Origin: Heliocidaris erythrogramma
Lineage: Eukaryota > Echinodermata > Echinoidea > Camarodonta > Echinometridae
Reading direction: 5' to 3'
NCBI GenBank assembly: GCA_025617745.1
Contig: CM046853.1
Span: 5,762,873 to 5,826,872, forward strand
Length of the DNA stretch: 64,000 nt
Every line of letters begins with the position of its first letter. The first letter of the stretch is position 1. The notes under the pieces were generated by a model. That model ran no database searches. It was not told the origin of the DNA and saw only the letters and a program-made list of their open reading frames with translations. Positions 9,909-62,544 of the stretch are shown in pieces. Both the position numbers and the translations under genes were made by a program.

Positions 9909-12900
9909 TCACTGCTCAAGAGACTGCAACTGCACAAAGTTTTCATCATCCACAATTTCAAAATTCATCTTCTTGTAGTTGGGTACATCTGTTCTTCTGT
10001 AAACAGCTACATGATCATAAAGTTTCTCTACCACAGGCTTGGGTTGTTCAGCCCCTGCTAAACTTAGAATATTTGATGCATAACCCCACTGCCTGTCTCC
10101 CATGTAGTGTGCATAGCGATGGGGGAGCCCTTCATCTAATCTCTTTTGGAAATCATTTGCTTCATCTTCCTCCATCTCTTTCTGTGTTGGAAGCTTCATA
10201 GAGCCATCTAATGCCGCAAGGAAGTATAATGTTTGTGCATTAAAGTGAGGATAGGGACAGATGCGTATGGTGATACCAATGAAACACAGGGTGGGGAAAC
10301 TCTGGTGGATGATATGTTTGTACAGCGGAGTAACTCTCCCATCAGTCACATCTACCATGCAATCTGGATGCAAGAAGCTAAAGTCATACTCATATCCAGA
10401 ACAGAACATAATGCTATCAAAAGTATCCTTACACCCATCCAAGAACTCAACTTCACTCTTACAGACCGATTTGACAGCTTGCACTTCCCTAATGTTTGTT
10501 GGTAGCGGCGTCTTCAATCTTGGTCTCCAATGACTGATGTATATCTGCTTGGCATGCGGTGACAGGTCTAATGCTATGTCTATTCCTGAAGCACCAGCAC
10601 CTACAATCAAGACTGACCGATCCTTATAGGTTTCTGGATGACGGTAGTTGTGACTGTGAAGGATTTGGCCAGAGAAGGTATCCAACCCGTCCATGTTGGG
10701 AATCTTAGGAAGTGCATAATGTCTGCAGCAGGAAAATAAACCAATTAAAAAAACTAATGAATTACATCATAAATGAGGGCATATCAAAAACATGAATAAA
10801 TTCTTGATAATTATTCTACATGCAACTCTAAATTTCATGGGTTGTTCCTATGAACAGAGCTGAAGCCAGCTAAAACAGAAGAATCATGCAACAAGAGCAT
10901 TAAAGACACCCTCTTCATTACCATCTTGAAATTCCTATCTGACTTTGAATCTATGTCTAAGTACCATATATTTATCAATATTTACCAGTAGTTCATTCTT
11001 ATTCATATAACTCCACATACCCATTGCAAACCATGACAGCATCATAGTGGGAAGTAACAGACCCATATTCCTGGTTCTCCACATTGCGAACTTTGACCTC
11101 CCATGTGACAGCTTGAGTATTACTACCTGATTTCAGTGGTCTCACAGATTCCACCATGGTGTTGAACTTCATATGAAAGTTAAAATACACAATAAAATTG
11201 GTAAAAATGATCATATGCAGAAGTTGTGGAAGGAGCTACATAAATTTGTCATCCTTTTAATGTACAAAATGAGAAATTTCTTAACAGGAAAGTCAGAAGA
11301 ATTACTTGGTTTTAACAGAAGTAGAAAAACCAGTGAATCAAATCATAAAGGTTGGAGGAAAATCAAACAACTAACAAGAAATTTATTAATCTTGTAATGA
11401 CATGAAAAACTAGGAAAACAATGAAAATCACTAGAAAAGTTGGCAACTCGGTCATGAGTATGTGATGTTATTCCCTCACAACTCAACAATTATTATGTTT
11501 ATATTGACAATACACATTCTCAATTTTGTCCCAGAATATGATGTCCATATAACTTGAATCAAGTTATATTTATAGTAATATGTTTTTGCATGTATACTAC
11601 GGAGCCCCTAAGGGGACATAAAATGACACGAGTTTTTTTTTTATCTCGGGGCCCCGACTTATTAACTCGGGGCCCCGACTTATTAACTCGGGGCCCCGAC
11701 TTATTATCTCGGGGCCCCGACTTATTAACTCGGGGCCCCGACTTATTAACTCGGGGCCCCGACTTATTATCTCGGGGCCCCGACTTATTAACTCGGGGCC
11801 CCGACTTATTAACTCGGGGCCCCGACTTATTAACTCGGGGCCCCGACTTATTATCTCGGGGCCCCGACTTATTATCTCCGGGCCCCGACTTATTAACTCG
11901 GGGCCCCGACTTATTAACTCGGGGCCCCGACTTATTAACTCGGGGCCCCGACTTATTATCTCGGGGCCCCGACTTATTAACTCGGGGCCCCGACTTATTA
12001 ACTCGGGGCCCCGACTTATTATCTCGGGGCCCCGAGTTAATAACTCGGGGCCCCGACTTAATTATCAGCATACGATACCATGCATATGTACGGGGCTCCG
12101 TACATTATGCATACACTACCAGCCGTATCAACAATCCCCATGCTGTTTTAACGCGCCATGCTTGCCTAAGTCACCATACCTTACAGTCAAGAATGGACGA
12201 ACGAGAACAAGAACAAAATGATGTGATTTAGGTTTGTTTCGAAATGGGACTTTTGTATAAAGATATAGTCACGGTTCTTGCAACAGAGTGCGGAATTATC
12301 ATTTCTACCCGTCATTTGCATGGGCGTCGGAAGGGATTTTTGATTGGTCCGGCTCCGCCTGCCGTGCCGTAGGCACGGTGCGTGCCGCAGGCACGCCAGC
12401 CAAAAAGGTAGATTATTGGTCAGGCTCAAGCCGGGCCGGCCGGGCCGGCTCCGACGCCCATGATTTGAAACGGCTTCTCAGACAGCTTGGTTTGTTTAGA
12501 AGAAAAAACTACTGTCACATCGGTGAGGTAGTTGAATTTGTCCAAAGGCAGGTTGAGGGATCGGGTCGTCTACATGGTTACCGGTGGATGTTTGAAAAAT
12601 GTTTAGCACATCATATTAAGTGTAAAAAAGATAACCACTATAGATGGGTTGGCAATGTAAGGGGGAATTAATAAATGTAACAGAAACAATATGTGAATCC
12701 TGATTTATTAGGAAAAATATGTGTTGTCATTGTCAGATTGTTATATTTAATCAAATCTGACAAACTGTTGTTATGCTCTTTATGAATGTCAATCTGAAAT
12801 TCTTTGGATTTTCATTGATCTATGGATTAATACACAAACAGCTACTAAAATAGAAAGGTATACATTTTGTCAAGGTGAGCTTGAAGTATGTCAAAATCAG

Positions 12901-14841
12901 ATACATTTATGATCGGCTGCCAAGTTATCAATGTCAGAGAAATTTCAGCTCGTAAGTGACAATGCAATGCAATTTTAAAATCTGTGATAGAATTAAATGA
13001 ATGATGACAATAGCCCGGATATTGTAAAGTTTTGATCTTAGATGGCGCTGTTACCATTAGTACCGGCCGAGTGCGTACTGGCCGCAAGTCACATTGATAA
13101 AAATGAATGAAAATAAATTTGCCTATGTACCAAAAATTATAAAAATAATGATTATCTTGTTTTCTTTTATTTATTTCAGTTATGTTCATTATTTTAACCA
13201 GTAAAACGTGGATAAGAGAAATACTGAGAAATAAAAGAAAGATGTAGATGATGTTGATGATGATAAATTTAATGAAAGAAAACAATTTTAATACCTAGGC
13301 TTATAGTGTGGGATGAGAAGCAGAAATCTAATGAATACAGATAATAAACAAAGAGTGAAAGAATTAAGAAATTTAAGAAACAAGAATGAAAACAAAGAGG
13401 GAAGGAAGCAAAGAAGTGAGAGAGGATGAACATAAGAAAAAGGAAGGAAGGAGGGGAAGAAAAAGAACAAAAGTCGGGGCCCCGACTTATTAACTCGGGG
13501 CCCCGACTTATTAACTCGGGGCCCCGAGTTAATAAGTCGGGGCCCCGAGATAAAAAAAAAAAACTCGTGTCATTTTATGTCCCCTTAGGGGCTCCGTAGT
13601 ATACACCTTCACAAAATAGTTCATGAACTCAAAAATATTGAGAATTTTTTTCAAAATATTACATACTAATAACTTTTACATATATTTTATAAAAATTAAT
13701 CATTTCATGATTTTTTACAGAAAATTATTTAGTCTGTATTAGTGAATATGTTTTTAAAAAACCATATTACTATAATATAACTTGGTCCAAGTTATGAGGA
13801 AATCATATTCTTGGTCAAAAATTGAAATTAGTATGATTGATGTAAACAAATTGATTGGTGAGTTGTGAGAGAGTGACATCACAGCCAATCTCTCTAGGAA
13901 CTTTCAGTTTTCCCTTGTTTTTCACATGTCATTATAAAAATCATAACTTTCTTACTGATTGTCCAATTTTATTCAAAATGTTTTTGATGACCTATTTGCT
14001 TCTATCAAAACCAATTAATTCTTGGACCAGACTTTCCCTTAAATTCAAATCTTATTCATACTTCCTCATAAGTTCTTAATATGATATTGTTTGCTTTAAG
14101 TTGCCAATTACAACAAATAATATGCACAAATACTTCCCAGTGAAAAACAATGCATTTTTTAACATACAATACAAATTTGTTTAAACATTCATTGATTCAT
14201 GACTGATTCCTCAAAAGAAAAAAAAATACTTCTACCTGTATATATTTGAGGAGATCAAAATGGTCAGCATACTGTTCAAGGTATTGTAGCATGTCTGTAT
14301 GCTTGATAAAAGATGGAAGAGAACTGTTGAAGGGGAAGTCTGGGAAAGGCATCACTTCCTTAGGGAGGTTAGTTCTAGGGGAAAGAACGAAAAGATTGAC
14401 AATTTTTGACTGGTTGTTATTTAGTGTGGTGAAAATGTTCAATTTTATAAATATATAGACAAACTCTGATAAAATAACAAAGATTTTTTTAAATCATTAA
14501 AATTAACATTTTTTTCTTCCAAATGGTACAGGTAGGTATATTATGAAAAGCAGCTATTGAAAATTGCTAAGCAGAAAGATTAATCATACAAATATGAATT
14601 TTTCAATAACCAATCTTCAGAATTTTTCTGTTTCTTACTTGAGTGAAGAATACATGCTTGAATGAATGGGCAGCCCATGTCTGTCTTTCCCTGTCTCCTC
14701 TGTATATACCCAAGTACCTCCAACTCTATCTGCTTTTTCAAAGACTACTGGTTCAAATCTGTCGGGTCTAGCTCCCATGTATCTTGCAGCACAAAGTCCA
14801 GCTGCTCCACCACCAATCACTGCAACCTTCAGCTTATTCAT
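9909..14841 (-). CDS. Flavin-containing monooxygenase (FMO-like), 4 coding exons
   Basis: Coding exons on the minus strand: 14639-14841, 14236-14374, 11021-11166 and 9909-10722; all junctions are GT/AG and the phases close to 1302 nt (433 aa). FMOs use FAD, NADPH and O2 to oxygenate soft N or S nucleophiles in xenobiotics and metabolites, commonly on the ER. Visible motifs are the FAD-binding GGGAAG near residue 10, a TNLPKEVM-type segment spanning exons 1-2, the FMO signature FSGQILHSHNY (179-189, FxGxxxHxxxY), and the NADPH-binding GAGASG (about 204-209). The protein is shorter than the roughly 530 aa of vertebrate FMOs and lacks a clear hydrophobic C-terminal anchor. The start is the first Met, 8 residues before the FAD motif. 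Intron 3 (11167-14235) holds a 2-kb transposable element. Which FMO subfamily this is cannot be settled here. Confidence 0.93.
11643..12063. repeat. 20-unit, 21-bp palindromic array (left)
   Basis: I count twenty GGGGCCCC cores, one of them mutated by a single base. Spacers alternate between TTATTAA and TTATTAT, often in a T-T-S order when read as GPDLLT/GPDLLS, suggesting a 63-bp higher-order period. Unit 19 is followed by an inverted spacer. Because the unit length is a multiple of three, both strands stay open (11554-12231 plus, 11559-12071 minus); these are not genes. Confidence 0.95.
12480..12671 (+). pseudogene. Possible integrase-core transposase remnant
   Basis: The open frame here reads LFRRKNYCHIGEVVEFVQ..., then GSGRLHGYRWMFEKC, and ends at 12671. 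From memory, the GSG-x-LHGYRWM pattern resembles the region N-terminal to the catalytic core in integrase-core domain proteins that are common in marine invertebrate transposons. No catalytic DDE residues are present and the frame stops after about 60 residues. If the match holds, this is what is left of the element's own gene. The family assignment is tentative. Confidence 0.4.
13473..13548. repeat. 4-unit palindromic array (right)
   Basis: Four units of the same 21-bp repeat lie inside the right terminal repeat. Spacer orientation flips between units 2 and 4, so the array is itself partly inverted. Confidence 0.92.
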
Positions 14842-17575: not shown

Positions 17576-18308
17576 AAATTTTAGTAAATGCCTCGCGCAG
17601 CCTGGAGGCATGCAATAGACCATAACAAAGTGAAAGTCAAGACTCATATTTCATAACGTTAGTCATACTTCATAAAAATGAGCAAGTCCACATTTTTATG
17701 TGCAACTCCAATTCCAAAGTGAACCCGACAATATACCCGATGGTATAAGCCTAGTGGACTGTACTTTACAAGAAGATGAAGAAGAAGAACGTGAAGTTGA
17801 ATTGACAGAAAGTGAATGAGTGATGACTGCACTGAAAATGAAAGACATAGGCCTAAGTATAACTCCAACTCCAACTCCAAGTTAAACTTAAAGGAGAATG
17901 AAGGTCAAAACATTGTAATCAAGCGTTTACAAACTAAAATTGTACTTGTTTGAATGATCCAAACATGTCACAAATCTGATGTACCATATTTGAGTAAATT
18001 CAATCTTAAAACATGGACTTGTTATGCGGAAAGTGACGAAATTGCGCTATAGTGTGTGATTGGCTGTTACCATTCATAGCTATCATTCAAAATGATGTCT
18101 CTACAAAGCGTGTACAAAATATAATTTAAAGCAGATCTGTATCTAAAAATATTGAAAAACTGTAATTTACGTATTTAAAATGAAATAAAAATAGTGATAA
18201 CAACAATACAATTAATTTTACACTGATCTTTAGATTATCAAATAGACCTGTTTCTTAATGTTTCAAATGTCACTATGAACAAGAAAACTAAAATTAGCCA
18301 AAAAAAGG

Positions 18309-19520
18309 ATGAGAGAGGGTAGTTTAAGTGATGTGGAGGAGTTGGCGGCGGATACCGACTTCGGCACCCCGCCGTCAACTCCGCTCAAAACAGGTGAAAA
18401 CGCCAAAAAAACAGACCTTAAGGTGCTCTTAGTACCCATAGAGAGAAATAAAAACCTGAGCGCAGTAAATCAGCTAACTATCAAGAAAGATATAGAAAAG
18501 GCTTGTAGGTCTCCCCCAGACTACATTAAGTTTGTTCGAGGTGGGAAGGGGCTCTTAGTAAAATGCAGAAATGACAGGCAATATAAAGCCTTAACCCAGA
18601 TACCGGAGATCGGCAAAATTGCAGTAAAAGCAGAGGAAAAAACCTACGCCTCGAAAGGGGTCATATTTGGGATTTCTCTTGAGACATCTGAGGAAGATAT
18701 TCTGCAAGAGCTAGAACGAAGTAGGGTAGTGAAAGTTGAGAGAATGAAAAAAAGAATTGAAGGTGATTTGAAGCCCCTAAAAACTATCATACTGTTTTTC
18801 TCTACCCCTCAAGTTCCTGAATATGTTGAATTTTGCTTCCAGCAGATAAGAGTCAAGGAATACATTCCACCAGTACCCAGGTGCTACAAATGCCAAAGAT
18901 ACGGGCATTTAGCAATAGGATGTAAAGCCAAGGAGAGGTGCCCTAGGTGTGGCCTAGGGCATTCGGTAGAAAGTTGCGAGCTGGAGAGACAACATTTCAA
19001 ATGTGTAAATTGCAATGGTAACCATTCGGCCGCTTATAAAGGATGCGAGTCATCGAAAGAAGCACAAGAAGTGCAGCAAATAAAAATACAAAATCGAATT
19101 TCTTTTGCACAGGCAGTGAAACTACACTCAGAACAAAATGAGGAACATAAGCAGGAAAAACAGTTTAAAAACTCAGAACTTAAGAATGTAATAAAAGAAA
19201 ATGACAAAATAAATACTCGGAAAGAGAATTTAACAATTGTAGATTCCGATCAAACCGATATGGAAATCGTCTCCGGCTCGCAATTTTCTACCAAAATGGA
19301 TACGACAAGCAATAAGTCTGAAAATACAGACCAAAACAATAGAAATTTCTTGAAAGGTGTCCCCGACATCACACTTGTCTCTTTCTTTATCAGATTAATC
19401 AGAATAGTCACAAAGCCAGATTGTAACCCATTTGATGAAATTACACATATCTTGAAAGATACACTGGGCTTACATCCCACCGTAGATGAATTACAGACCA
19501 TTCATGGCCTATTCCACTAG
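18309..19520 (+). CDS. LINE ORF1, gag-like zinc-knuckle protein (403 aa)
   Basis: A nucleic-acid-binding protein that coats LINE RNA. Three consecutive zinc knuckles are visible: CYKCQRYGHLAIGC (C192, CX2CX4HX4C), CPRCGLGHSVESC, and CVNCNGNHSAAYKGC. An RRM-like region probably lies at about residues 40-180, judging from alternating hydrophobic stretches. The C-terminal third is lysine- and glutamate-rich, polar and probably disordered. The frame is open throughout and overlaps the start of ORF2 by up to 35 nt in another frame, so ORF2 may be made by reinitiation or frameshift. The first Met, just after an A-run, is the only sensible start. Confidence 0.87.
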   Translation: MREGSLSDVEELAADTDFGTPPSTPLKTGENAKKTDLKVLLVPIERNKNLSAVNQLTIKKDIEKACRSPPDYIKFVRGGKGLLVKCRNDRQYKALTQIPEIGKIAVKAEEKTYASKGVIFGISLETSEEDILQELERSRVVKVERMKKRIEGDLKPLKTIILFFSTPQVPEYVEFCFQQIRVKEYIPPVPRCYKCQRYGHLAIGCKAKERCPRCGLGHSVESCELERQHFKCVNCNGNHSAAYKGCESSKEAQEVQQIKIQNRISFAQAVKLHSEQNEEHKQEKQFKNSELKNVIKENDKINTRKENLTIVDSDQTDMEIVSGSQFSTKMDTTSNKSENTDQNNRNFLKGVPDITLVSFFIRLIRIVTKPDCNPFDEITHILKDTLGLHPTVDELQTIHGLFH

Positions 19521-22500
19521 CCTTGTTACACTCGTGGCTTTCAGCATTCTCCAGTGGAATGCACAGGGTCTTGGATGCCACGGGGATGAGTTAATTAGTT
19601 TTTTAAATCAGCAAACAAGACCCTTTGAAATTATCTGTATTCAAGAAACGTGGTTTGACGATGGATGTATTATGCAAATTCCAGATTATATATGTGAATA
19701 TAGAAATAGACAAGGAGGAACTCGGGGTGGGTGTGCAATATACGTGTATTCTAAACTAAATTACAATAGAGTTTTCAAACACGATGATTTAGAAATCATA
19801 TCATTACAAGTTTTATTGCATGATAACGTTTCTGTGAATATAGTCAATTTCTATAACCCATGTAACAAACTCAGCATTGGTTCGTTAAACGAATTATTTA
19901 ACAATGTTGTGAAGGAAAAGCACACAATCATAATAGGAGATTTTAATGCACACAACACTTTATGGGGTAGCCAGAAAACAGATACAAATGGTAAAGTAGT
20001 GGAAGAGTTTGCAAACGAGAGAAACCTAGTTATTTTGAATGATGGGAGTGCTACTAGAGTAGACTACCACACGGGTAATTTTTCTTGTTTGGATCTAACC
20101 TTAGCCCCTCCTTGTACAGCTAACAAAACAACATGGCAAGTCCTGAACAATAGTTTGGGAAGTGACCATTACCCACTGTTATGCCAATTGAACATATTGA
20201 ATGAGAATAGTACACATACAAAGATTGATCAATCCCAACAAATTTGTTCAATGCTATCCACAAAGAATGTAAATTGGGATGAATTTAGGCATCTAACTGA
20301 GGAACAATGGGATACCTTACAGAATGAAGGTAAGGTTATAGAGTACCAAACTTTCATGGAAACAATTAGGTTTTCCCTGGAAAAAGTGAAAGCACATCGG
20401 GCGACAAAGAAAATAAAGAAAAACCCTGTGCCATGGTGGAATAAAGAATGCTCCTCTAGAATAAAGGAGAGAAATAGGGCAAGGAGCAAACTGAAAAGTT
20501 ATGTAATACCCTCTGCTGATTTAGTGGAGGATTTCAAGAAGAAAAGAGCTATCGCTCAAAGAACTTTAAGGCAAGCTAAAAGATTATACTGGGAAAAATA
20601 CTGTCAGAACATTGATCGTTTTACCCCTCTATCGAATATCTGGAGTATGATCAAAAGGATCAATAATGATGGTATTTCAACCAGGAAAAACATTGTTCTC
20701 ATGAGAGAGGATTGTTCCGCAATCACTGACAGTGAAGTCGCGGATACTTTCGCCAGCCATTTTAAAACCATTAACGAAAGTTTTCAGGGCAAGGTTAATA
20801 CCCCTGAACAAAAAGAAATTGCTAGCCAATGTGACGATATCATATCATCCTTTAGTGATGCACAGAGTAGTAGTGTCCTTGATGAACCCTTTACCATGTA
20901 TGAATTAAGTATAATATTAAAAACCTGTAAAGAGTCTTCTCCAGGTAGAGATGGAATTGGGTATGAAGTATATCAAAATCTCTCATACAAAGGGAGAGAA
21001 GTAATGTTAAATATCATGAATAACATATGGGTAACAGGAATTGTTCCCACCCAATGCAAGTATTATGTTATTGTCCCAATATTGAAACCACACAAGGTAG
21101 CTACAGATGTTTCTTCCTATAGGCCTATATCTCTTACTACCTGTTTCATCAAAATAGTTGAGAAAATTATCAAGGAACGAATGACATGGTTTACGGAAAA
21201 ACATTGTCTGTTACCAAATTGTCATAGTGCTTTTAGAAAAGCAAGAAGCACAAAAGACAATATAACCCAACTAGAAAATGACATTCAAAAGAGTATTGGT
21301 AATAAAGAACATACCCTGGCCGTTTTCTTTGATATGGAGAAGGCTTATGACAGACTGTGGAAGAAAGGATTGATTTATAAACTGAACAAACTTGGTTTCC
21401 AAGGCAACACTGTTAGGTTCTTATGGAACTACTTAAGTGGGCGCTCTTTCCAGGTCCGGGCAAATCAGTGCTACTCAGTAACACACAACATAGAGGAAGG
21501 GCTGCCCCAGGGCAGCTCACTTAGTCCTGTCCTTTTTAATTTGATGTTATCGGATATACCGATGGACGCATCTGTCAATATTTCGACATACGCTGATGAC
21601 TGTGTAATATGGAAGAGTGGGAAAAACATAGATTTTCTGAAAAGAAAAGTACAAATCTACGTAAACAACCTAAATGAGTGGTTCAACAAATGGGGTTTTA
21701 CCCTTTCTAAAGAAAAGTCTGTTACTTTATTTTTCAGCAATACTAACAAAATTGTACAGATTGACTTAGATGGGGTCCCTTTACCACCAAAGGAGGAACA
21801 TCTATTTTTAGGTGTAATGCTGGACAGGAAGCTTACATGGAGACCGCATATAAACATGATTGTAACAAAAGCTAAAAAGAAAATAAATATCATGAAAAGA
21901 CTAGCGGGAACTACCTGGGGAAGTAGCTATAAAAGCCTTCTGAAATTCTATAAGGTGGTCATTAGGCCACTCTTGGATTATGCATCTGAGGCATATGATT
22001 CGGCTCATGATCATGTGAAGAACTTCTTGCTGACTATTCAATACCAAGCTCTGAAGTTGTGTACAGGGGCGTTGCCGGGAACTTCCTTAGAATCTTTACA
22101 GGTGGACACGGGTGAATTACCACTCGACCTAAGAAGATCCATGCTTAGTAAGGTATACAAAGCAAAAATAAGGCAAAACCCCACACATCCACTCCAATCC
22201 TCCTTGAAGAACTGCTGGCAATTTGAATATGAAAAGAATAAGAAAGTGCGTAAACCATTTGGTTTGAGAGTTATGGAAGATGAAATATACATGTATCATG
22301 CAAACGAATCACTCATGTCTTTTACCCCCATGCCGCCTTGGCATCTCTCTCCACCAGAAGTGTCATTGGCGCTACATGAGCTTGTGTCAAAAAGTGATAA
22401 CATTTTTTATCAATACAATACAACTGTGGAGTATATTAATAAAATGTGGAAAAATAATCTCCATATTTATACTGATGGTTCTAGAGACCCTGCAAACGGC

Positions 22501-23337
22501 AGCGCCTCTGCTTGCTATTATGTGCCTGCAATGCGGGTAGTTGAATGTAAAAGAATGCAAAATTTTACATCATCTTACAGATCAGAATTGGCCGCAATTG
22601 TCTTGGCACTAAGGTGGCTTGAAAATTTGAATGTTTATAATAAAGTGGTAATTTTGACAGATTCTCTGAGTGCTATTCAAGCAATCAAGGAAAACAATAA
22701 CGACAATTTCGTAAAAGAAATTATAATCACCGCTACATGTCTAAAATACAAAGGCACAATAATCTGCTTAGAATGGATCCCATCTCACTGTGGGGTCCAA
22801 GGGAACGAAACGGCTGATTTCTATGCGAAAACAGCCCTAAAACAAAGAATAGAGATTAATAATGGATTGAATATCCAAGAAACCAAACATATTTTAAGAA
22901 TTTTCATACGAAATGAATGGCAGAAGAGATGGGACAGGTCAAACTCAAAATTAAGAAAATACCAAAAAGTGGTCTCAGAAAAACCATCATTTCAGTATCT
23001 CTGCACCGACAAAAGTAGTGAAAAAATGATTCACAGATTACGCTTGGCAGGTTTGGGTTTGAATGATTTCCTGTTTAAGACAGGAAGACACACAACTGGA
23101 AAGTGTGATTTTTGTAACGAGAGAGAAACGGTATACCATTTTTTATATGTTTGCCCTAGGTTTATCATTCAACGCGCCCTGTTACTTGCTGAATTAAATG
23201 TGAGCAATGTCTCTGAGGCGGAACACAAAGTGGAGAATCTCAGTGTCAAGACACAAGGTGCACTCGTCAGATATTTCAAAAGGACTCGTCGATTTGTAAT
23301 TGGTTGCCAAGAGGGCAACCGTGTTAGTAAGGTGTAA
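19486..23337 (+). CDS. LINE ORF2, endonuclease-reverse transcriptase-RNase H (up to 1283 aa)
   Basis: Nicks target DNA and reverse-transcribes the LINE RNA. In order: an APE-type endonuclease with QWNAQGL (23-29), QETW (53-56), GDFNAH (151-156) and SDHYP (226-230); a reverse transcriptase with FFDMEKAYDRLW, LPQGSSLSPVLFN and the catalytic YADD (702-705); RNase H with YTDGSR (about 995), SELAA, LTDSLSA and SHCGVQGNETAD; and a C-terminal CDFC-x7-H-x4-C motif starting near 1207. All catalytic motifs I can check are intact and there is no stop, which suggests recent insertion. The true start may be the in-frame Met at 19504 rather than 19486. RNase H presence fits I-like LINE clades. Confidence 0.92.
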   Translation: MNYRPFMAYSTSLVTLVAFSILQWNAQGLGCHGDELISFLNQQTRPFEIICIQETWFDDGCIMQIPDYICEYRNRQGGTRGGCAIYVYSKLNYNRVFKHDDLEIISLQVLLHDNVSVNIVNFYNPCNKLSIGSLNELFNNVVKEKHTIIIGDFNAHNTLWGSQKTDTNGKVVEEFANERNLVILNDGSATRVDYHTGNFSCLDLTLAPPCTANKTTWQVLNNSLGSDHYPLLCQLNILNENSTHTKIDQSQQICSMLSTKNVNWDEFRHLTEEQWDTLQNEGKVIEYQTFMETIRFSLEKVKAHRATKKIKKNPVPWWNKECSSRIKERNRARSKLKSYVIPSADLVEDFKKKRAIAQRTLRQAKRLYWEKYCQNIDRFTPLSNIWSMIKRINNDGISTRKNIVLMREDCSAITDSEVADTFASHFKTINESFQGKVNTPEQKEIASQCDDIISSFSDAQSSSVLDEPFTMYELSIILKTCKESSPGRDGIGYEVYQNLSYKGREVMLNIMNNIWVTGIVPTQCKYYVIVPILKPHKVATDVSSYRPISLTTCFIKIVEKIIKERMTWFTEKHCLLPNCHSAFRKARSTKDNITQLENDIQKSIGNKEHTLAVFFDMEKAYDRLWKKGLIYKLNKLGFQGNTVRFLWNYLSGRSFQVRANQCYSVTHNIEEGLPQGSSLSPVLFNLMLSDIPMDASVNISTYADDCVIWKSGKNIDFLKRKVQIYVNNLNEWFNKWGFTLSKEKSVTLFFSNTNKIVQIDLDGVPLPPKEEHLFLGVMLDRKLTWRPHINMIVTKAKKKINIMKRLAGTTWGSSYKSLLKFYKVVIRPLLDYASEAYDSAHDHVKNFLLTIQYQALKLCTGALPGTSLESLQVDTGELPLDLRRSMLSKVYKAKIRQNPTHPLQSSLKNCWQFEYEKNKKVRKPFGLRVMEDEIYMYHANESLMSFTPMPPWHLSPPEVSLALHELVSKSDNIFYQYNTTVEYINKMWKNNLHIYTDGSRDPANGSASACYYVPAMRVVECKRMQNFTSSYRSELAAIVLALRWLENLNVYNKVVILTDSLSAIQAIKENNNDNFVKEIIITATCLKYKGTIICLEWIPSHCGVQGNETADFYAKTALKQRIEINNGLNIQETKHILRIFIRNEWQKRWDRSNSKLRKYQKVVSEKPSFQYLCTDKSSEKMIHRLRLAGLGLNDFLFKTGRHTTGKCDFCNERETVYHFLYVCPRFIIQRALLLAELNVSNVSEAEHKVENLSVKTQGALVRYFKRTRRFVIGCQEGNRVSKV

Positions 23338-33300: not shown

Positions 33301-36300
33301 TCTCTAATCCCCAAGTCACAAAGACAAACTGCAGCCTTGTACACCATATGCATGTCAATGAATGAAACAAAAGAATTTCAAAAGGGATTTGCAAGTTCAT
33401 ATCCAAACAGATTAATAGCCAGTATGTCCACCTCTAGCTTGCTGGCAAGCTGTACACCGTCTTCGCATGCTTCCGATCAGATTCGCGATGGTAGCCTGGG
33501 GAACATTGTTCCATTCCTCTTGCAGTGCTGCAATGAGCGTCTCCCTATTGATGGGTTGATTGTCACGCCTTGACACACGTCGACCAAGCTCTTCCCAGAG
33601 ATGTTCAATTGGGGAAAGGTCTGGTGAACGGGCGAACCATGGCAGAACATCAATATCCTCTTGCTCGAGGGGTGCAAATCCCTTTTGAAATTCTTTTGTT
33701 TCATTCATTGACATGCATATGGTGTACAAGGCTGCAGTTTGTCTTTGTGACTTGGGGATTAGAGAGTCCTTTGCTTTAGTGCACATTTCTTTTGTGGCAT
33801 TGAAGAAAACTTTTTGTTATTGACTGTCATTTAAAGCCATGCATTGAATCAACATTATATCCAAATTTGGTACATTTCCATGCAGAGAATTTAATTTGGT
33901 GATCTCTTGAACTTTTATAAGTTTCTTTTTTCCTTTAGTGTATAATATGTAGTCCTAGCTCAATATCTGAAACGTTTGATTTTTCTTTGTTGTAGCCATC
34001 TTACTCAAATGGTTTACTGTCAAACTAGAAACTTAAAGCTTTCGCGAATTGTTAATGACAGCCAACTGTGCAGCAAGAAACTTTCGCGAATTGCAATAAT
34101 TTGATGTTGTTTCAATTGTGATTTGATTATTTCGCGGCATGAAACCTTCGCGAATCTCAACCACTTGTGAAATTCGCGAAAATTTCATGCAGGCAAAAAT
34201 GTCTGGTTTGACGGTAGTAATTTGTTTATCCTAATAGATGATTCCAACACCATTCATCTAAAGATTGTACCACCAACTAAAGAACCTCAATCAGTACTGG
34301 AGCATCATGTACCTATGTTTCTCTGCAATAAAAAGTATTATGATAACAATCAGTGGGACCTCACCACACTACAGGTACCTTTATCCATCTATCATCCATC
34401 TTTCGTCCATCTACGTACACAAAGCTCTTCAATGTTTTATCAGTCATAGTTACTTGTGGGAGGGCAAGATGATATTACAGTAGATGTGTGGAATTAGAAT
34501 ACCATGTTGGAATGTGCACAGGGAATCAAGATTATCACTGTTGCTAAATGTTTATGTGTACATAAATGGGGTTGGAAAGGTTGCTTTTTTATTTTAATTG
34601 ATCAAGAAATGAAAAAAAAGTCATGTTTCATCCTTTTATTCACATTTAATACTTCATCATAGTGCAGTCCATTATCCTTTATGACAAGGTTTGTTGATTA
34701 ATTCACATCTTTGAGATTTTAGAGACTTGATAGGTTTAATGAACAATAATGTATGTAGTATTTTTTCCCCCTCTATTCATGTGTGATTTTGTTAGTAAAA
34801 AGTGCATTGCTGTTTTCTTCCCAAGATTCTTCAGTATATTGATGGAGTGAATCACGTTCAAAGAATAGCTGTGGAAGCAGACGTGGATTTGAATCTTGTC
34901 AAGATTTGCCTGCAGAACTTGCTGTAAGTGTATAAATAGTAGCTAAAATGACATATCTTTGAAAGATTGTGTTTACAGTCTCCTTAGGCCTTACACAACT
35001 GAGACTGGAGTCATTTTATAATAATAATAATATATAAGATTTATAAGGCGCCGAATCCACTTGATGATCAAATGCTCAAGGCGCAAAATTGAAAATTGAA
35101 AATCAAACTGTATCCAATGACCTAGTAATGCCGTGTTCTAATTGGTAAAGGGTCATCTCAATGAAAATTGTTTCTATAATATTTCCTCTAAATCTTACTC
35201 TGAACTGGAATTATTTTCTAAGATTTTGATTTTTATCTTGATTATTCAGGGTGGTTTTAGAGTGAAACTGCATATTGTGAATCATGGCTTGCAAACATTC
35301 TACATGATTGTTGTGATACATTTTGGTAAAGAAATGTTTTTGAATGAAAGGGCATGAACAATTAAGTGAAAATGTGATGTCAAACAATGGTATGCTTTAT
35401 TATCATAATTTCTTTGTGCAATTTCAGGTACTATGGAGTCATCACTATTGTTCCAATCTTTCAGGTAAATATAGAAACAGTTATACCAAGTTAATGTGAA
35501 GTGAAAAAAACTTCAATTCAACAATTTTCTTCTTATCGCCTTCTACTTGAGAATCCTGATTTCATGTTCAGTTTTCTTAATTAATCATAATAATAATGAA
35601 CGTTGCTTATATAGAGCATATCACATACATAAGAAAGTCCCTATGAGCTTAAAGAAAGGTCAGGATAGAAAATAAATATGCCTGGTACATGGAGTTATGA
35701 TAATAAAGAATCAAATAATTACAAAGAATCAAACTCCCAGATATTTGATTGCCTGTAAATACAATTATATGAAAATGTTGTTGTTGATTGAGGTAGTGAT
35801 TTTTTAAATACAGGTATCACCAAAATCTTGGATAGTAAGAGGCACACCCATTTTAACATTTTGCCTTGTTATGCCTCCGCCCACCGAAGGTGGGTGCCGG
35901 AGGCATTATGTTTTCGGGTTGTCCGTCCGTCCGTCCGTCCCACTTCTCGTTACCGCGATATCTGAAGAATCATTTGAGGTAGGAACCTCAAACTTGGTAC
36001 TAGTATGAATCCCCATACGAAGATGAACTGATTAGATTTTGGGGTAAGTAGGTCAAAGGTCAGAGGTGACAGAGGTCAATTTACATGAAATTACATGAAA
36101 TTCTTGGTTTTTAGCACCGTTACCGCGATATCTCAAGAACTGTTTGAGGTAAGAACTTCAAACCTGGTACTAGTATGTATCCCTATACGAAGATGAACTG
36201 ATTAGATTTTGGGGTAAGAAGGTCAAAGGTCAGAGGTCACAGAGGTCAATTTACATGAAATTACATGAAATTCTTGGTTTTTAGCACCGTTACCGCGATA

Positions 36301-39300
36301 TCTCAAGAACTGTTTGAGGTGAGAACTTCAAACTTGGTACCAGTATGTATCCCCATAGAAAGAGGAACTGATTAGATTTTGGGGTGGGTAGGTATGTCAA
36401 AGTTCAGAGGTCACAGAGGTCAATTTACATGAAATTACATGGAATTACTGGTTTTTAGCACCATTACGATATCTCAAGAACTATCTGAGGTAAGAACTTC
36501 AAACCTGGTACTAGTATGTATCCCTATGCGAAAATGAACTGATTAGATTTTGGGGTAAGGAGGTCAAAGGTCAGAGGTCACAGAGGTCAATTTACATGAA
36601 ATTACATGAAATTCTTGGTTTTTAGCACCGTTACCGCGATATCTCAAGAACTGTTTGAGGTGAGAACTTCAAACTTGGTACCAGTATGTATCCCCATAGA
36701 AAGAGGAACTGATTAGATTTTGGGGTGGGTAGGTATGTCAAAGTTCAGAGGTCACAGAGGTCAATTTACATGAAATTACATGGAATTACTGGTTTTTAGC
36801 ACCATTACGATATCTCAAGAACTATCTGAGGTAAGAACTTCAAACCTGGTACTAGTATGTATCCCTATGCGAAAATGAACTGATTAAGTTTTGGGGTAAG
36901 GAGGTCAAAGGTCAGAGGTCACAGAGGTCAATTTACATGAAATTACATGAAATTCTTGGTTTTTAGCACCGTTACCGCGATTTCTGAAGAACTATTTGAG
37001 GTAAGAACTTCAAACTTCGTACCAGTATGTATCCCCATAGAAAGAGGAACTGATTAGATTTTGGGGTAGGTATGTCAAAGTTCAGAGGTCACAGAGGTCA
37101 ATTTACATGAAATTACATGATATTATTGTTTTTAGCATCGTTATCAAATATTTCTAGAAGAGTTTGAGCCATCAACTGAATTTAGGCGGAGGCATATAGG
37201 AGACGCAGTCGCATTCATCTTGTAATGTATGAAATAGTTTTCAACTCTGTAGATACAATACACTCCCAGATATTTGATTGCCTGTTAAGACAATTGTATG
37301 AAAACTTTTGTTGATTTGAGTCAGTGATTGTCTAAATATCACCAGAAACATAATTTCTGTACCTTTGATAGTAGGAGGCATACCCTTTTTAACATTTCAA
37401 TTCAATTCAATTCAGTTTTATTTAGCAAATTCATAAAAAACATTACAAATAAAATACATGTAATACATTAAAACAATTGAAACAGTAAAATACTTCAGAA
37501 ATTGCAGGGAAATGCAGCAGAAAGACGAAGTCTTATATTGCAGCCGCACCCCATATTATACATAACTACAGTACATGAATAAAATACAGTATGTTAATGT
37601 AAAACACAGTATGTAAAACACATTGTGCCCTAACACATACACATACGCACACACAGTTACGTGTTTTCACCGGAAAACGAGGACTGTGTGTCAACATTAC
37701 CCAACCGTGGACTTATTTATAATTAATTATTCACAGTTATTTTTCAATTGTTTTTGAAGAGAATAATCCTGGAAGACTAAAAATAAAATCCTGTTCAATT
37801 GTAACATGCTTTTCCGGGCGTGCCCGTCTGTTGGATAGAGTGCTCGTCTGTTGGATAGAGTGCGTAAGCAAAAAAAAAAAAAAAAAAAAATTATACCCAC
37901 AAAAAAGTTCACGACCACCCAAACGTGGACTCTGCTCAGAAATGCTCGAAAGTTCAACAGCCTAGTTAGAAGCTAAAAATAAAGCCAACAAACTGTAAAT
38001 CAAAACAGGACAGTCCTCGGTCTCGTGTGTGTCCTCGGTTCGAAGATGTGTTTTCATAAAAGTGCCCGTGGTTGCCGGTGAACACCAACGCACCCATACA
38101 CACACACACACACATCTATATTTTCTATTGTTCGAATTTCAACCGATGACTCCACTATTGAATTGCGTCACAAAATTCATTGACGGAATAAACCTCACTA
38201 ATTGTTGACAACCGATGACCTATTGAATTACTACCGATGACCCATTGTTCTCTTTGTTCAATGTCATCGGTTGGAATGCGTAAACATGTACACACTGACA
38301 CACACTCACACACAAAATGCCTTGATATGTTATTGCACGTAATTTGTCTGAAGTAAATGCATTTTATCTCAAAAACATTCAACGATGAACTACTTTTGAT
38401 ATCAAATTATTCAAAGTATTCAAATTAAAATATGACATAATAGAAACTGGAAGAACTTTATGAAAACACATAGTTAAAGAATTTCTCCTTGTAATGTATG
38501 ACCTTTATACCCCAATTCTTTAACTGTAGTATTCCAATGTGTACATGGTGCAGCCATCTATCAACACCTTAATGGAAAACACTCAGCTGCAAAGAGAATG
38601 CATTGAATATGTCACACTACTAGGTATGTCACATGACTTCAAGTAGAAGTAGTTAATTACCAGTATCGATTTTACATTAATTAAGAACCTGTCGTTCATG
38701 TTATTTTGATAAAGACATGCACAATATCTTTTCTTTCTATGGGAAACAGAAACTTTTTAGATATATGTGTTTTTAATCTGAATTTTGTGAACTATGATTG
38801 GGATGGGTAGATATTGTAAAAATGATGTTTTATTGATTATCTGAAACGGTACTTTCAGTTTGTATTTAGTACTTTGAATCCATGATGGTTGGTATCATAA
38901 TTAATATGTACCAACACATATGTAATGCTTATTTAAATCAGTGTCATGATGTTTTTATTCTACGTACATTTCATGAGAGTTTGATTCATCAGGACTTCTT
39001 TTTTTTTTAGGTTACAATCCTCCAACCTTGAGGTCTGTAATGCTGCTGTACAGCTCACTGTGTCCAGGAATGACAGTTCGAGATCTGTGTATGAGACACA
39101 ATCCTAGAGCACTCAATATTTGTGAAAGGTGAATTAATTTGTGTTTTGATTTGAAATAAAAGCATAAGGAAGTGGCGAAGATGATGACGGCGATGACAAT
39201 GAGCAGTATGATGAAATTAGTGATAATGTTGTTGGTCATGATGAAGATGGTGTTGATCACAACAGGTGTTGCTATTGAAGATGGTAGATAATGATGATGG

Positions 39301-43881: not shown

Positions 43882-44377
43882 ATGGAAATTCCACCCTGAT
43901 ATTAAGTTTTTAAAAAAGCAGAAAAAATAAGGGAACAGATCAGTTAAAGTTTGAGCAAAATCCGATAAGAAATAAGGTTATAACTTTTTGAAGTTGTAAT
44001 TAATCAAACACAAATTGGCAACTCTGTGAAGTATCTTGCGAGCTCCGTACATAAAAATTCATAAATATTCATAAATTTTCATTTTCTTTGTTTTTGACGA
44101 GGGAATTAAATTGTATCATACAGATTTTGTGTAAAAACAAAGTGAAGTGATTATATCTAGGGTGCATGTATGATAAAACATTTGCTTTAGAGAAAATGGA
44201 AAAGGATCTCACAAGATATCACGGTGTTGCCAATTTGTGTTTTATTGATTACAACTTCAAAAATTCATAACTTTCTTATTTCTTATCAGATTTTGCTTAA
44301 ACTTTCATTGATCTGTTTCTTTATTTTTTCTGCTTCTATTAAAACCAACTTGTAATCAGGGTGAACTTTCCCTTTAA
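43882..44377. mobile_element. Inverted-repeat MITE
   Basis: Left arm from GGAAATTCCACCCTGATA through AAGCAGAAAAAATAA and ATTGGCAACTCTG pairs with the right arm that ends CAGGGTGAACTTTCCC. The arms are about 180 bp and diverged. Non-coding. Confidence 0.72.
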
Positions 44378-61883: not shown

Positions 61884-62310
61884 TATGCCTCCGCCCACGG
61901 AAGGTGGTGCCGGAGGCATTATGTTTTCGGGTTGTCCGTCCGTCCGTCCATCCCTCTTTCTTGTTTGAGCGATATCTAAAGAACAACATGAGGTATGAAC
62001 TTCAAACTTGGTGCTAGTATGTATCACCATAGGAAGATGATCTGGAGAGATTTGGGGTTAGGTAGGTCAAAGGTCAAGGTCACAGAGGCCAATTTCTGAA
62101 TTTCAGGTGTTAGCCTCGTTCTCACGATAACTCAAGAACCATTTGAGGTATGAACTTCAAACTTGCTGGAAGTATGTATCACCATAGGAAGACGATCTGA
62201 TTAGATTTTGGGGTAGGCAGGTCAAAAGTCAAGGTCACAGAGGCCAATTTCTGAAATTTCAGGTGTTAGCCTCGTTCTCACGATAACTCAAGAACCATTT
62301 GAGGTATGAA
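61884..62310. mobile_element. Minisatellite-bearing element, shorter copy
   Basis: Same TATGCCTCCGCCCAC start, hairpin and TCCG run as 35870-37196, followed by about 2.5 units of the ~170-bp repeat with diverged sequence. The right terminal repeat is not found. Confidence 0.78.
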
Positions 62311-62544
62311 CTTTGTATCACCATAATGAGATGAAATTTTCGTTGTCATTTGCTTTTCGACTTTGAAGAGTTGAATGGTATCTTTGCAGTGTATTCACAA
62401 TTCATTTGCATGTTCTCATGTATTACCGCAGAGGCTTATATTTTACCTGTTATTATGTCTGTGTATGTAATAAACAAAAAAGAATGTAAAAGAATAGAGG
62501 GAATGGAGGGAATATTATAGCAATATATCCATATAAAATGTACA

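What the first reader, a model, noticed from the sequence alone, without database searches (positions are those of the whole stretch)
11592..13604. Unrecognised 2-kb element with inverted arrays of a GGGGCCCC palindrome
Long terminal inverted repeats are followed at both ends by arrays of a 21-bp unit whose core is a perfect 12-bp palindrome (TCGGGGCCCCGA), 20 units at one end and 4 at the other. Subterminal arrays can act as transposase-binding sites. Here they could alternatively form cruciforms or be a dense protein-binding platform. I know of no described family with this exact layout.
Basis: partly seen in the sequence, partly recalled or inferred. Interest (0 to 1): 0.75.

Follow-up and report, generated by a model that had tools for sequence, protein, structure and literature searches.

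The report
Non-autonomous transposon with palindrome arrays
This looks like a recent insertion of a small, crippled cut-and-paste transposon, probably in an animal genome; its ends resemble the little-studied IS3EU superfamily, and it carries 24 copies of a short DNA palindrome that may serve as docking sites for the enzyme that moves it.

Summary
In detail: 24 units of 21 bp (20 left, 4 right), 23 of 24 with a perfect TCGGGGCCCCGA, lie just inside near-identical inverted ends. The element is best read as 11598-13598, ending TACGG..CCGTA and flanked on both sides by GTATAC, a likely 6-bp target-site duplication that is itself palindromic and so mimics extra inverted repeat. TA..TA ends, 6-bp duplications, TAYGG..CCRTA and TIRs over 30 bp are published marks of IS3EU/GingerRoot transposons. 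The interior holds a broken transposase-like N-terminal fragment (12193 to about 12611) with a stop and a 149-bp insertion, and no catalytic core was found; its family link rests on sequences I recalled, not a database hit. Best reading: a recent, internally deleted, non-autonomous IS3EU-type element whose Foldback/Galileo-like arrays are, by a small margin, more likely transposase-binding sites than passive expansion. The host genome, Dfam and Repbase were not available, so a second copy and an autonomous partner are untested. New variant of a known kind; moderate interest.

The parts
11592..11597 (.). left GTATAC, candidate 6-bp target-site duplication
   Evidence: identical to 13599-13604; palindromic, so it also reads as inverted repeat
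11598..11678 (+). left terminal inverted repeat, starts TACGGAGCCCCTAAGGGG, runs through a T-run and the cores of the first two array units
   Evidence: identical to the right end except T-run length
11646..12065 (+). left array, 20 units of 21 bp, core TCGGGGCCCCGA
   Evidence: the last two spacers (12036-12044 flipped, 12057-12065 diverged) depart from the rest
12080..12112 (.). internal imperfect palindrome holding an exact minus-strand copy of the terminal 11-mer TACGGAGCCCC (12092-12102)
   Evidence: 6.4e-5 expected by chance in the interior, 0 of 300 shuffles in either control
12193..12611 (+). broken transposase-like N-terminal coding fragment: ATG 12193, stop TAG 12229-12231, interrupted by 149 bp, similarity to recalled transposases at 12465-12611
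   Evidence: family link by recalled sequences only
12319..12462 (.). 144-bp insertion with ends CATGGGCGTCGG..CCGACGCCCATG and candidate duplication ATTTG (12314-12318, 12463-12467) inside the coding fragment
13474..13557 (.). right array, 4 units of 21 bp, spacers in mixed orientation; 33-bp-arm hairpin
13516..13598 (-). right terminal inverted repeat
13599..13604 (.). right GTATAC, candidate 6-bp target-site duplication
11287..11587 (+). left arm of an older, diverged inverted repeat into which the element appears to have inserted
   Evidence: 69% identical to the right arm over 308 alignment columns
13758..14037 (-). right arm of that older inverted repeat

Best explanation
A recently inserted, non-autonomous DNA transposon (11598-13598) of IS3EU/GingerRoot type. 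It would be moved in trans by a transposase from an intact relative elsewhere: the enzyme cuts at the TACGG..CCGTA ends and joins them to staggered target cuts 6 bp apart, leaving GTATAC on both sides. The element kept both ends and the first part of a transposase gene and lost the catalytic core. The palindromic 21-bp units, spaced two helical turns, are most likely a row of dimer-binding sites on one face of the helix that raise occupancy and help pair the ends; unequal exchange or slippage expanded them to 20 on one side. Shown: anatomy, near-identical ends, flanking 6-bp repeat, broken coding fragment. Inferred: superfamily (from published terminal rules), trans-mobilisation, transposase as the ligand of the arrays, recency. 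Within the confidence given, the superfamily is the firmer part (about 0.75) and the array role the weaker (about 0.45).
For: Ends TACGG..CCGTA with identical flanking 6-mers fit 'TA..TA termini, TSDs usually 6 bp' (PMC10045372) and '6 bp TSDs, TIRs longer than 30 bps, end with TAYGG..CCRTA' (PMC12730594, passages). Ends identical over 81/83 bp bar the T-run while the surrounding older repeat's arms are about 69-73% identical: a nested, younger insertion. CpG observed/expected 1.19 in the left array, 0.88 in the interior, 0.55 in the rest of the window, and 23 of 24 units keep both edge CpGs: little decay. Coding stretch 12465-12611 is 60% (47 aa) and 51% (49 aa) identical to two transposase pieces that I recalled (57% over 47 aa by BLASTP); a recalled 84-aa core of the same kind matches Pfam rva_4, Integrase core domain, E 9.9e-18. 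Precedent: two of the four long repeats in a Galileo TIR hold sites bound by its THAP domain (PMC3688188, passages).
Against: GTATAC is a palindrome, so the same bases can be read as inverted repeat with a TA or TATA duplication; the match even runs one base further out, TGTATAC, giving TGT..ACA ends as in IS481-like elements, though without a 4-bp direct repeat outside them (flanks TGCA and CCTT). GTATAC occurs 15 times in the window and TACGG 17 times, so neither is rare alone. The array core does not resemble the terminus beyond chance (9 of 11; 28 of 300 dinucleotide and 15 of 300 mononucleotide shuffles as good), which weakens 'iterated terminal binding site'. The arrays are very unequal (20 versus 4). 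No second copy was seen in the window.
Confidence: 0.6

Rival explanations
1. Same IS3EU-type element, but the arrays have no binding role: a palindromic segment expanded passively by slippage or unequal exchange and is carried along, a possible seed of satellite DNA.
For: Arrays unequal (20 versus 4) with near-identical units; core not significantly like the terminus. Tetris of Drosophila virilis is a published case of TIR tandem repeats seeding satellite arrays (PMC4079207, passages). Satellites related to IS3EU are in print: two of the 52 Pacific oyster satellites are labelled DNA/IS3EU in a table (PMC8268682, passage) and half of the Tribolium repeat TCAST10 is 86% similar to an IS3EU element (PMC5844308, passages).
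Against: Palindromy kept in 23 of 24 units, and the array starts at the same distance from both termini apart from the T-run, though recency alone could explain both.
Confidence: 0.35
2. A TA- or TATA-duplicating element (Tc1/mariner- or Harbinger-like) with TIR TACTACGGAG or CTACGGAG.
For: GTATAC contains TA and TATA at both ends, so the duplication is ambiguous in a single copy.
Against: TAYGG exactly next to a perfect 6-bp repeat would be coincidence; the coding fragment resembles recalled integrase-type transposases.
Confidence: 0.15
3. A host-protein platform or cruciform-forming device (regulatory or recombination hotspot) rather than a transposition feature.
For: As single-stranded DNA two units fold at -16.1 kcal/mol (z -5.8) and the right array at -46.6 (z -13.9); the 48-bp end before the array does not fold beyond shuffles (z -0.65, 51 of 200 as good). 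Dense CpG.
Against: Folding follows trivially from palindromy; the arrays sit exactly between the inverted ends of a mobile element.
Confidence: 0.1

Closest known systems
IS3EU/GingerRoot DNA transposon superfamily (Kojima and Bao 2023, PMC10045372, parts 1-3 of 5 read; Kojima 2025, PMC12730594, passages read)
   Same: TA..TA ends of TAYGG..CCRTA form, 6-bp flanking repeat, TIR over 30 bp; integrase-type transposase remnant (recalled link)
   Different: no catalytic core found in this copy; 21-bp palindrome arrays are not mentioned for IS3EU in what I read ('tandem repeat' and 'subterminal': 0 occurrences in PMC12730594)
Galileo, Foldback-like P-superfamily element (PMC3688188, passages read)
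   Same: internally repetitive ends; two of the four long repeats there hold transposase-binding sites
   Different: P superfamily with THAP domain, 1.2-kb TIR with long direct repeats, not 21-bp palindromes
Tetris and other foldback elements, a sea urchin one among those it cites (PMC4079207, passages read)
   Same: modular TIR with a flanking domain and then a tandem-repeat domain; non-autonomous
   Different: about 220-bp repeats; TIRs up to 1,735 bp

Membership tests
IS3EU/GingerRoot | TA..TA termini, TAYGG..CCRTA form | tested here: met
   TACGG..CCGTA at 11598 and 13598
IS3EU/GingerRoot | 6-bp target-site duplication | tested here: inconclusive
   GTATAC on both sides, but palindromic, one copy, no empty site
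IS3EU/GingerRoot | TIR longer than 30 bp | tested here: met
   81/83 bp, of which 35 bp lie before the T-run
IS3EU/GingerRoot | DDD/E integrase-like transposase without HHCC domain | tested here: inconclusive
   no core found: Pfam on 5 of the 40 frames of 25 aa or more listed and two sub-pieces; tblastn of two recalled transposase pieces, core included, against the whole window gave only 12465-12611. N-terminal fragment matches recalled transposases only. The 2023 paper counts 45 IS3EU families, 17 of them autonomous, so a missing core does not exclude membership
Galileo (P superfamily) | THAP domain / P-type transposase | tested here: inconclusive
   not seen in the pieces scanned, but only part of a gene is left
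Foldback (structural class) | long TIRs made of tandem repeats | tested here: inconclusive
   arrays follow the ends, but exact inverted identity stops within the second unit and copy number is 20 versus 4
IS481EU | TNT..AYA ends with duplications of about 4, 15 or 25 bp; found in parabasalids | tested here: not met
   TGT..ACA can be read at 11591 and 13607, but no 4-bp direct repeat lies outside it; longer ones not searched; distribution
any named Dfam/Repbase family | sequence match to a consensus | not testable with these tools
   no eukaryotic repeat library was offered and no genome is held for the window

The most novel reading that the evidence does not exclude
The IS3EU superfamily has independently evolved a Foldback/Galileo-like end: a short TIR followed by many copies of a palindromic dimer site at two helical turns, plus an internal copy of the terminal 11-mer inside a palindrome about 90 bp upstream of the transposase start that could act as an autoregulatory operator.
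Probability: 0.3. Interest if true: 0.55.

Novelty: new variant of a known kind. Interest (0 to 1): 0.4.

Why it matters
If the arrays bind transposase, this gives a compact system for asking how many sites a transposon synapse can use, and would add another superfamily, an integrase-type one, in which internally repetitive ends arose. If they are passive, it is a young stage of satellite DNA growing inside a transposon.

Tried and rejected
Own-genome search: no genome held for this window. Relatives in public collections: window fragment in viral contigs, 53 pattern stretches, 0 confirmed; recalled core in viral contigs (2 stretches) and genome contigs (31), 0 confirmed; recalled alignments in viral contigs (66 and 62 stretches), 0 confirmed; tblastn of one recalled piece in phages, no match; array unit and terminus as exact DNA patterns in viral contigs, 0 and 0; two-unit pattern in genome contigs, 0. 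These collections are viral or prokaryotic, so the misses say little. Literature: TACTACGGAG in 28 papers, the 20 listed with titles on unrelated subjects; CTCGGGGCCCCGA in 0; TACGGAGCCCC in 4, titles unrelated; sea urchin TU elements, 0 papers; an echinoderm search led nowhere (5 of 5,096 listed). IS481EU was my first guess; set aside because the paper reports it from parabasalids and because no 4-bp direct repeat lies outside the TGT..ACA reading. Higher-order period in the left array: no clear one (period 3: 9 of 15, period 4: 9 of 14, period 5: 8 of 13). Pfam matches to pieces of the element lie below the curated cut-offs and are taken as spurious, although three have small E-values: PF10538 (0.0018 and 0.00071; 18.6 and 19.9 bits against 27), PF22498 (0.00045; 20.5 against 26) and PF21300 (0.014). 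Terminal 11-mer at up to 2 mismatches: 8 matches in the window, 3.7 expected, 5 of 100 shuffles reach 8; only the three exact ones, all in the element, are used here. Other copies of the ends in the window: none; interior and small insert: no second copy at E 1e-3.

Full report
Observation. Twenty-four 21-bp units, 20 left and 4 right, carry TCGGGGCCCCGA; 23 of 24 cores are perfect palindromes. GGGGCCCC occurs 23 times in 64 kb, all inside the element; 0.16 expected. The ends are identical through the core of the second unit except a T-run of 10 versus 12, and their 31-mer has no other match in the window at up to 3 mismatches.

Boundaries. The apparent inverted repeat begins TGTATAC, but GTATAC is its own reverse complement. 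Read as a 6-bp target-site duplication, it leaves an element 11598-13598 with ends TACGGAGCCCC..GGGGCTCCGTA. In a single copy a TA or TATA duplication remains possible. About 1.7% of 6-mers in about 2 kb on each side are palindromic and GTATAC occurs 15 times in the window, so a palindromic duplication is a modest coincidence or a target preference.

Superfamily. Kojima and Bao 2023 (PMC10045372; I read parts 1-3 of 5) state that complete IS3EU families always have TA..TA termini with usually 6-bp TSDs, and that GingerRoot belongs to the same lineage. Kojima 2025 (PMC12730594; passages) gives fungal IS3EU as 6-bp TSDs, TIRs over 30 bp, ends TAYGG..CCRTA. The element fits these as far as one copy allows.

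Coding remnant. On the plus strand a frame opens at ATG 12193, meets TAG at 12229-12231 and continues. It is interrupted by 149 bp (144-bp insert plus duplicated ATTTG); frames on both sides agree by arithmetic. The stretch 12465-12611 matches two transposase pieces that I recalled from animal genomes at 60% over 47 aa and 51% over 49 aa, the only tblastn matches of these pieces in the window at E up to 1. A recalled 84-aa core of the same kind matches Pfam rva_4, Integrase core domain, E 9.9e-18. Curated libraries give the window fragment itself no match above cut-off, and the PDB only one at E 1.5. Only 5 of the 40 frames listed were scanned whole against Pfam. That the recalled proteins are IS3EU transposases is my recollection; no call shows it.

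Age and context. The arms of an older inverted repeat (11287-11587 and 13758-14037, about 69-73% identical) enclose the element, whose own ends are near-identical; CpG is undepleted in the left array (1.19) and less depleted in the interior (0.88) than in the rest of the window (0.55). Both point to a recent insertion, although lack of methylation could also keep CpG.

Arrays. A 21-bp period is two turns of B-DNA (established knowledge), so all cores face one side. As single strands two units or the right array fold strongly, as palindromes must; the 48 bp before the left array do not. The array core matches the terminus at 9 of 11 positions, which shuffles reach in 28 of 300 (dinucleotide) and 15 of 300 (mononucleotide), so that resemblance is not evidence. 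In contrast the internal palindrome at 12080-12112 contains the exact terminal 11-mer (0 of 300 in either control). Precedent for repeats in transposon ends acting as binding sites is Galileo, where two of four long repeats bind the transposase's THAP domain, though transposition could not be reconstituted (PMC3688188, passages). Precedent for such repeats turning into satellite arrays is Tetris (PMC4079207, passages), and satellites labelled as, or similar to, IS3EU are in print from oyster and flour beetle (PMC8268682 and PMC5844308, passages). I favour binding sites over passive expansion only slightly.

Limits. No eukaryote genome, Repbase or Dfam was available; searches of viral, phage and prokaryotic collections found nothing. 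That I know of no described family with this layout rests on full-text searches (listings, three of them capped) and on the passages named above. The host is probably an animal, judged from gene content (FMO-like and C2H2 zinc-finger frames, a non-LTR element) and general look; this is inference and the species was not identified.

Noticed in passing
18279-23337 +: Two long open frames of a non-LTR retrotransposon: a weak CCHC zinc-knuckle match (below cut-off), then endonuclease, reverse transcriptase and RNase H in one 1283-aa frame.
   Followed up: partly
11287-11587 and 13758-14037: Older inverted repeat with roughly 300-bp arms that surrounds the element; 11306-11393 also matches 44260-44348 at 74%.
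   Followed up: partly
12319-12462: 144-bp element with 12-bp inverted ends and candidate ATTTG duplication inside the transposase fragment; looks rich in internal palindromes by eye.
   Followed up: partly
35948-37143: Satellite-like array of about 170 bp, also scored as a 341-bp period with higher identity (94% versus 87% matches), possibly a dimeric higher-order unit; a unit of 155 bp that looks similar by eye recurs at 61970-62313.
   Followed up: no
33412-33816 -: 134-aa frame that looks to me like a Tc1/mariner transposase C-terminus (recalled); Pfam gives no family at E 0.001.
   Followed up: partly
2004-2077 -: tRNA-Arg (TCT).
   Followed up: no
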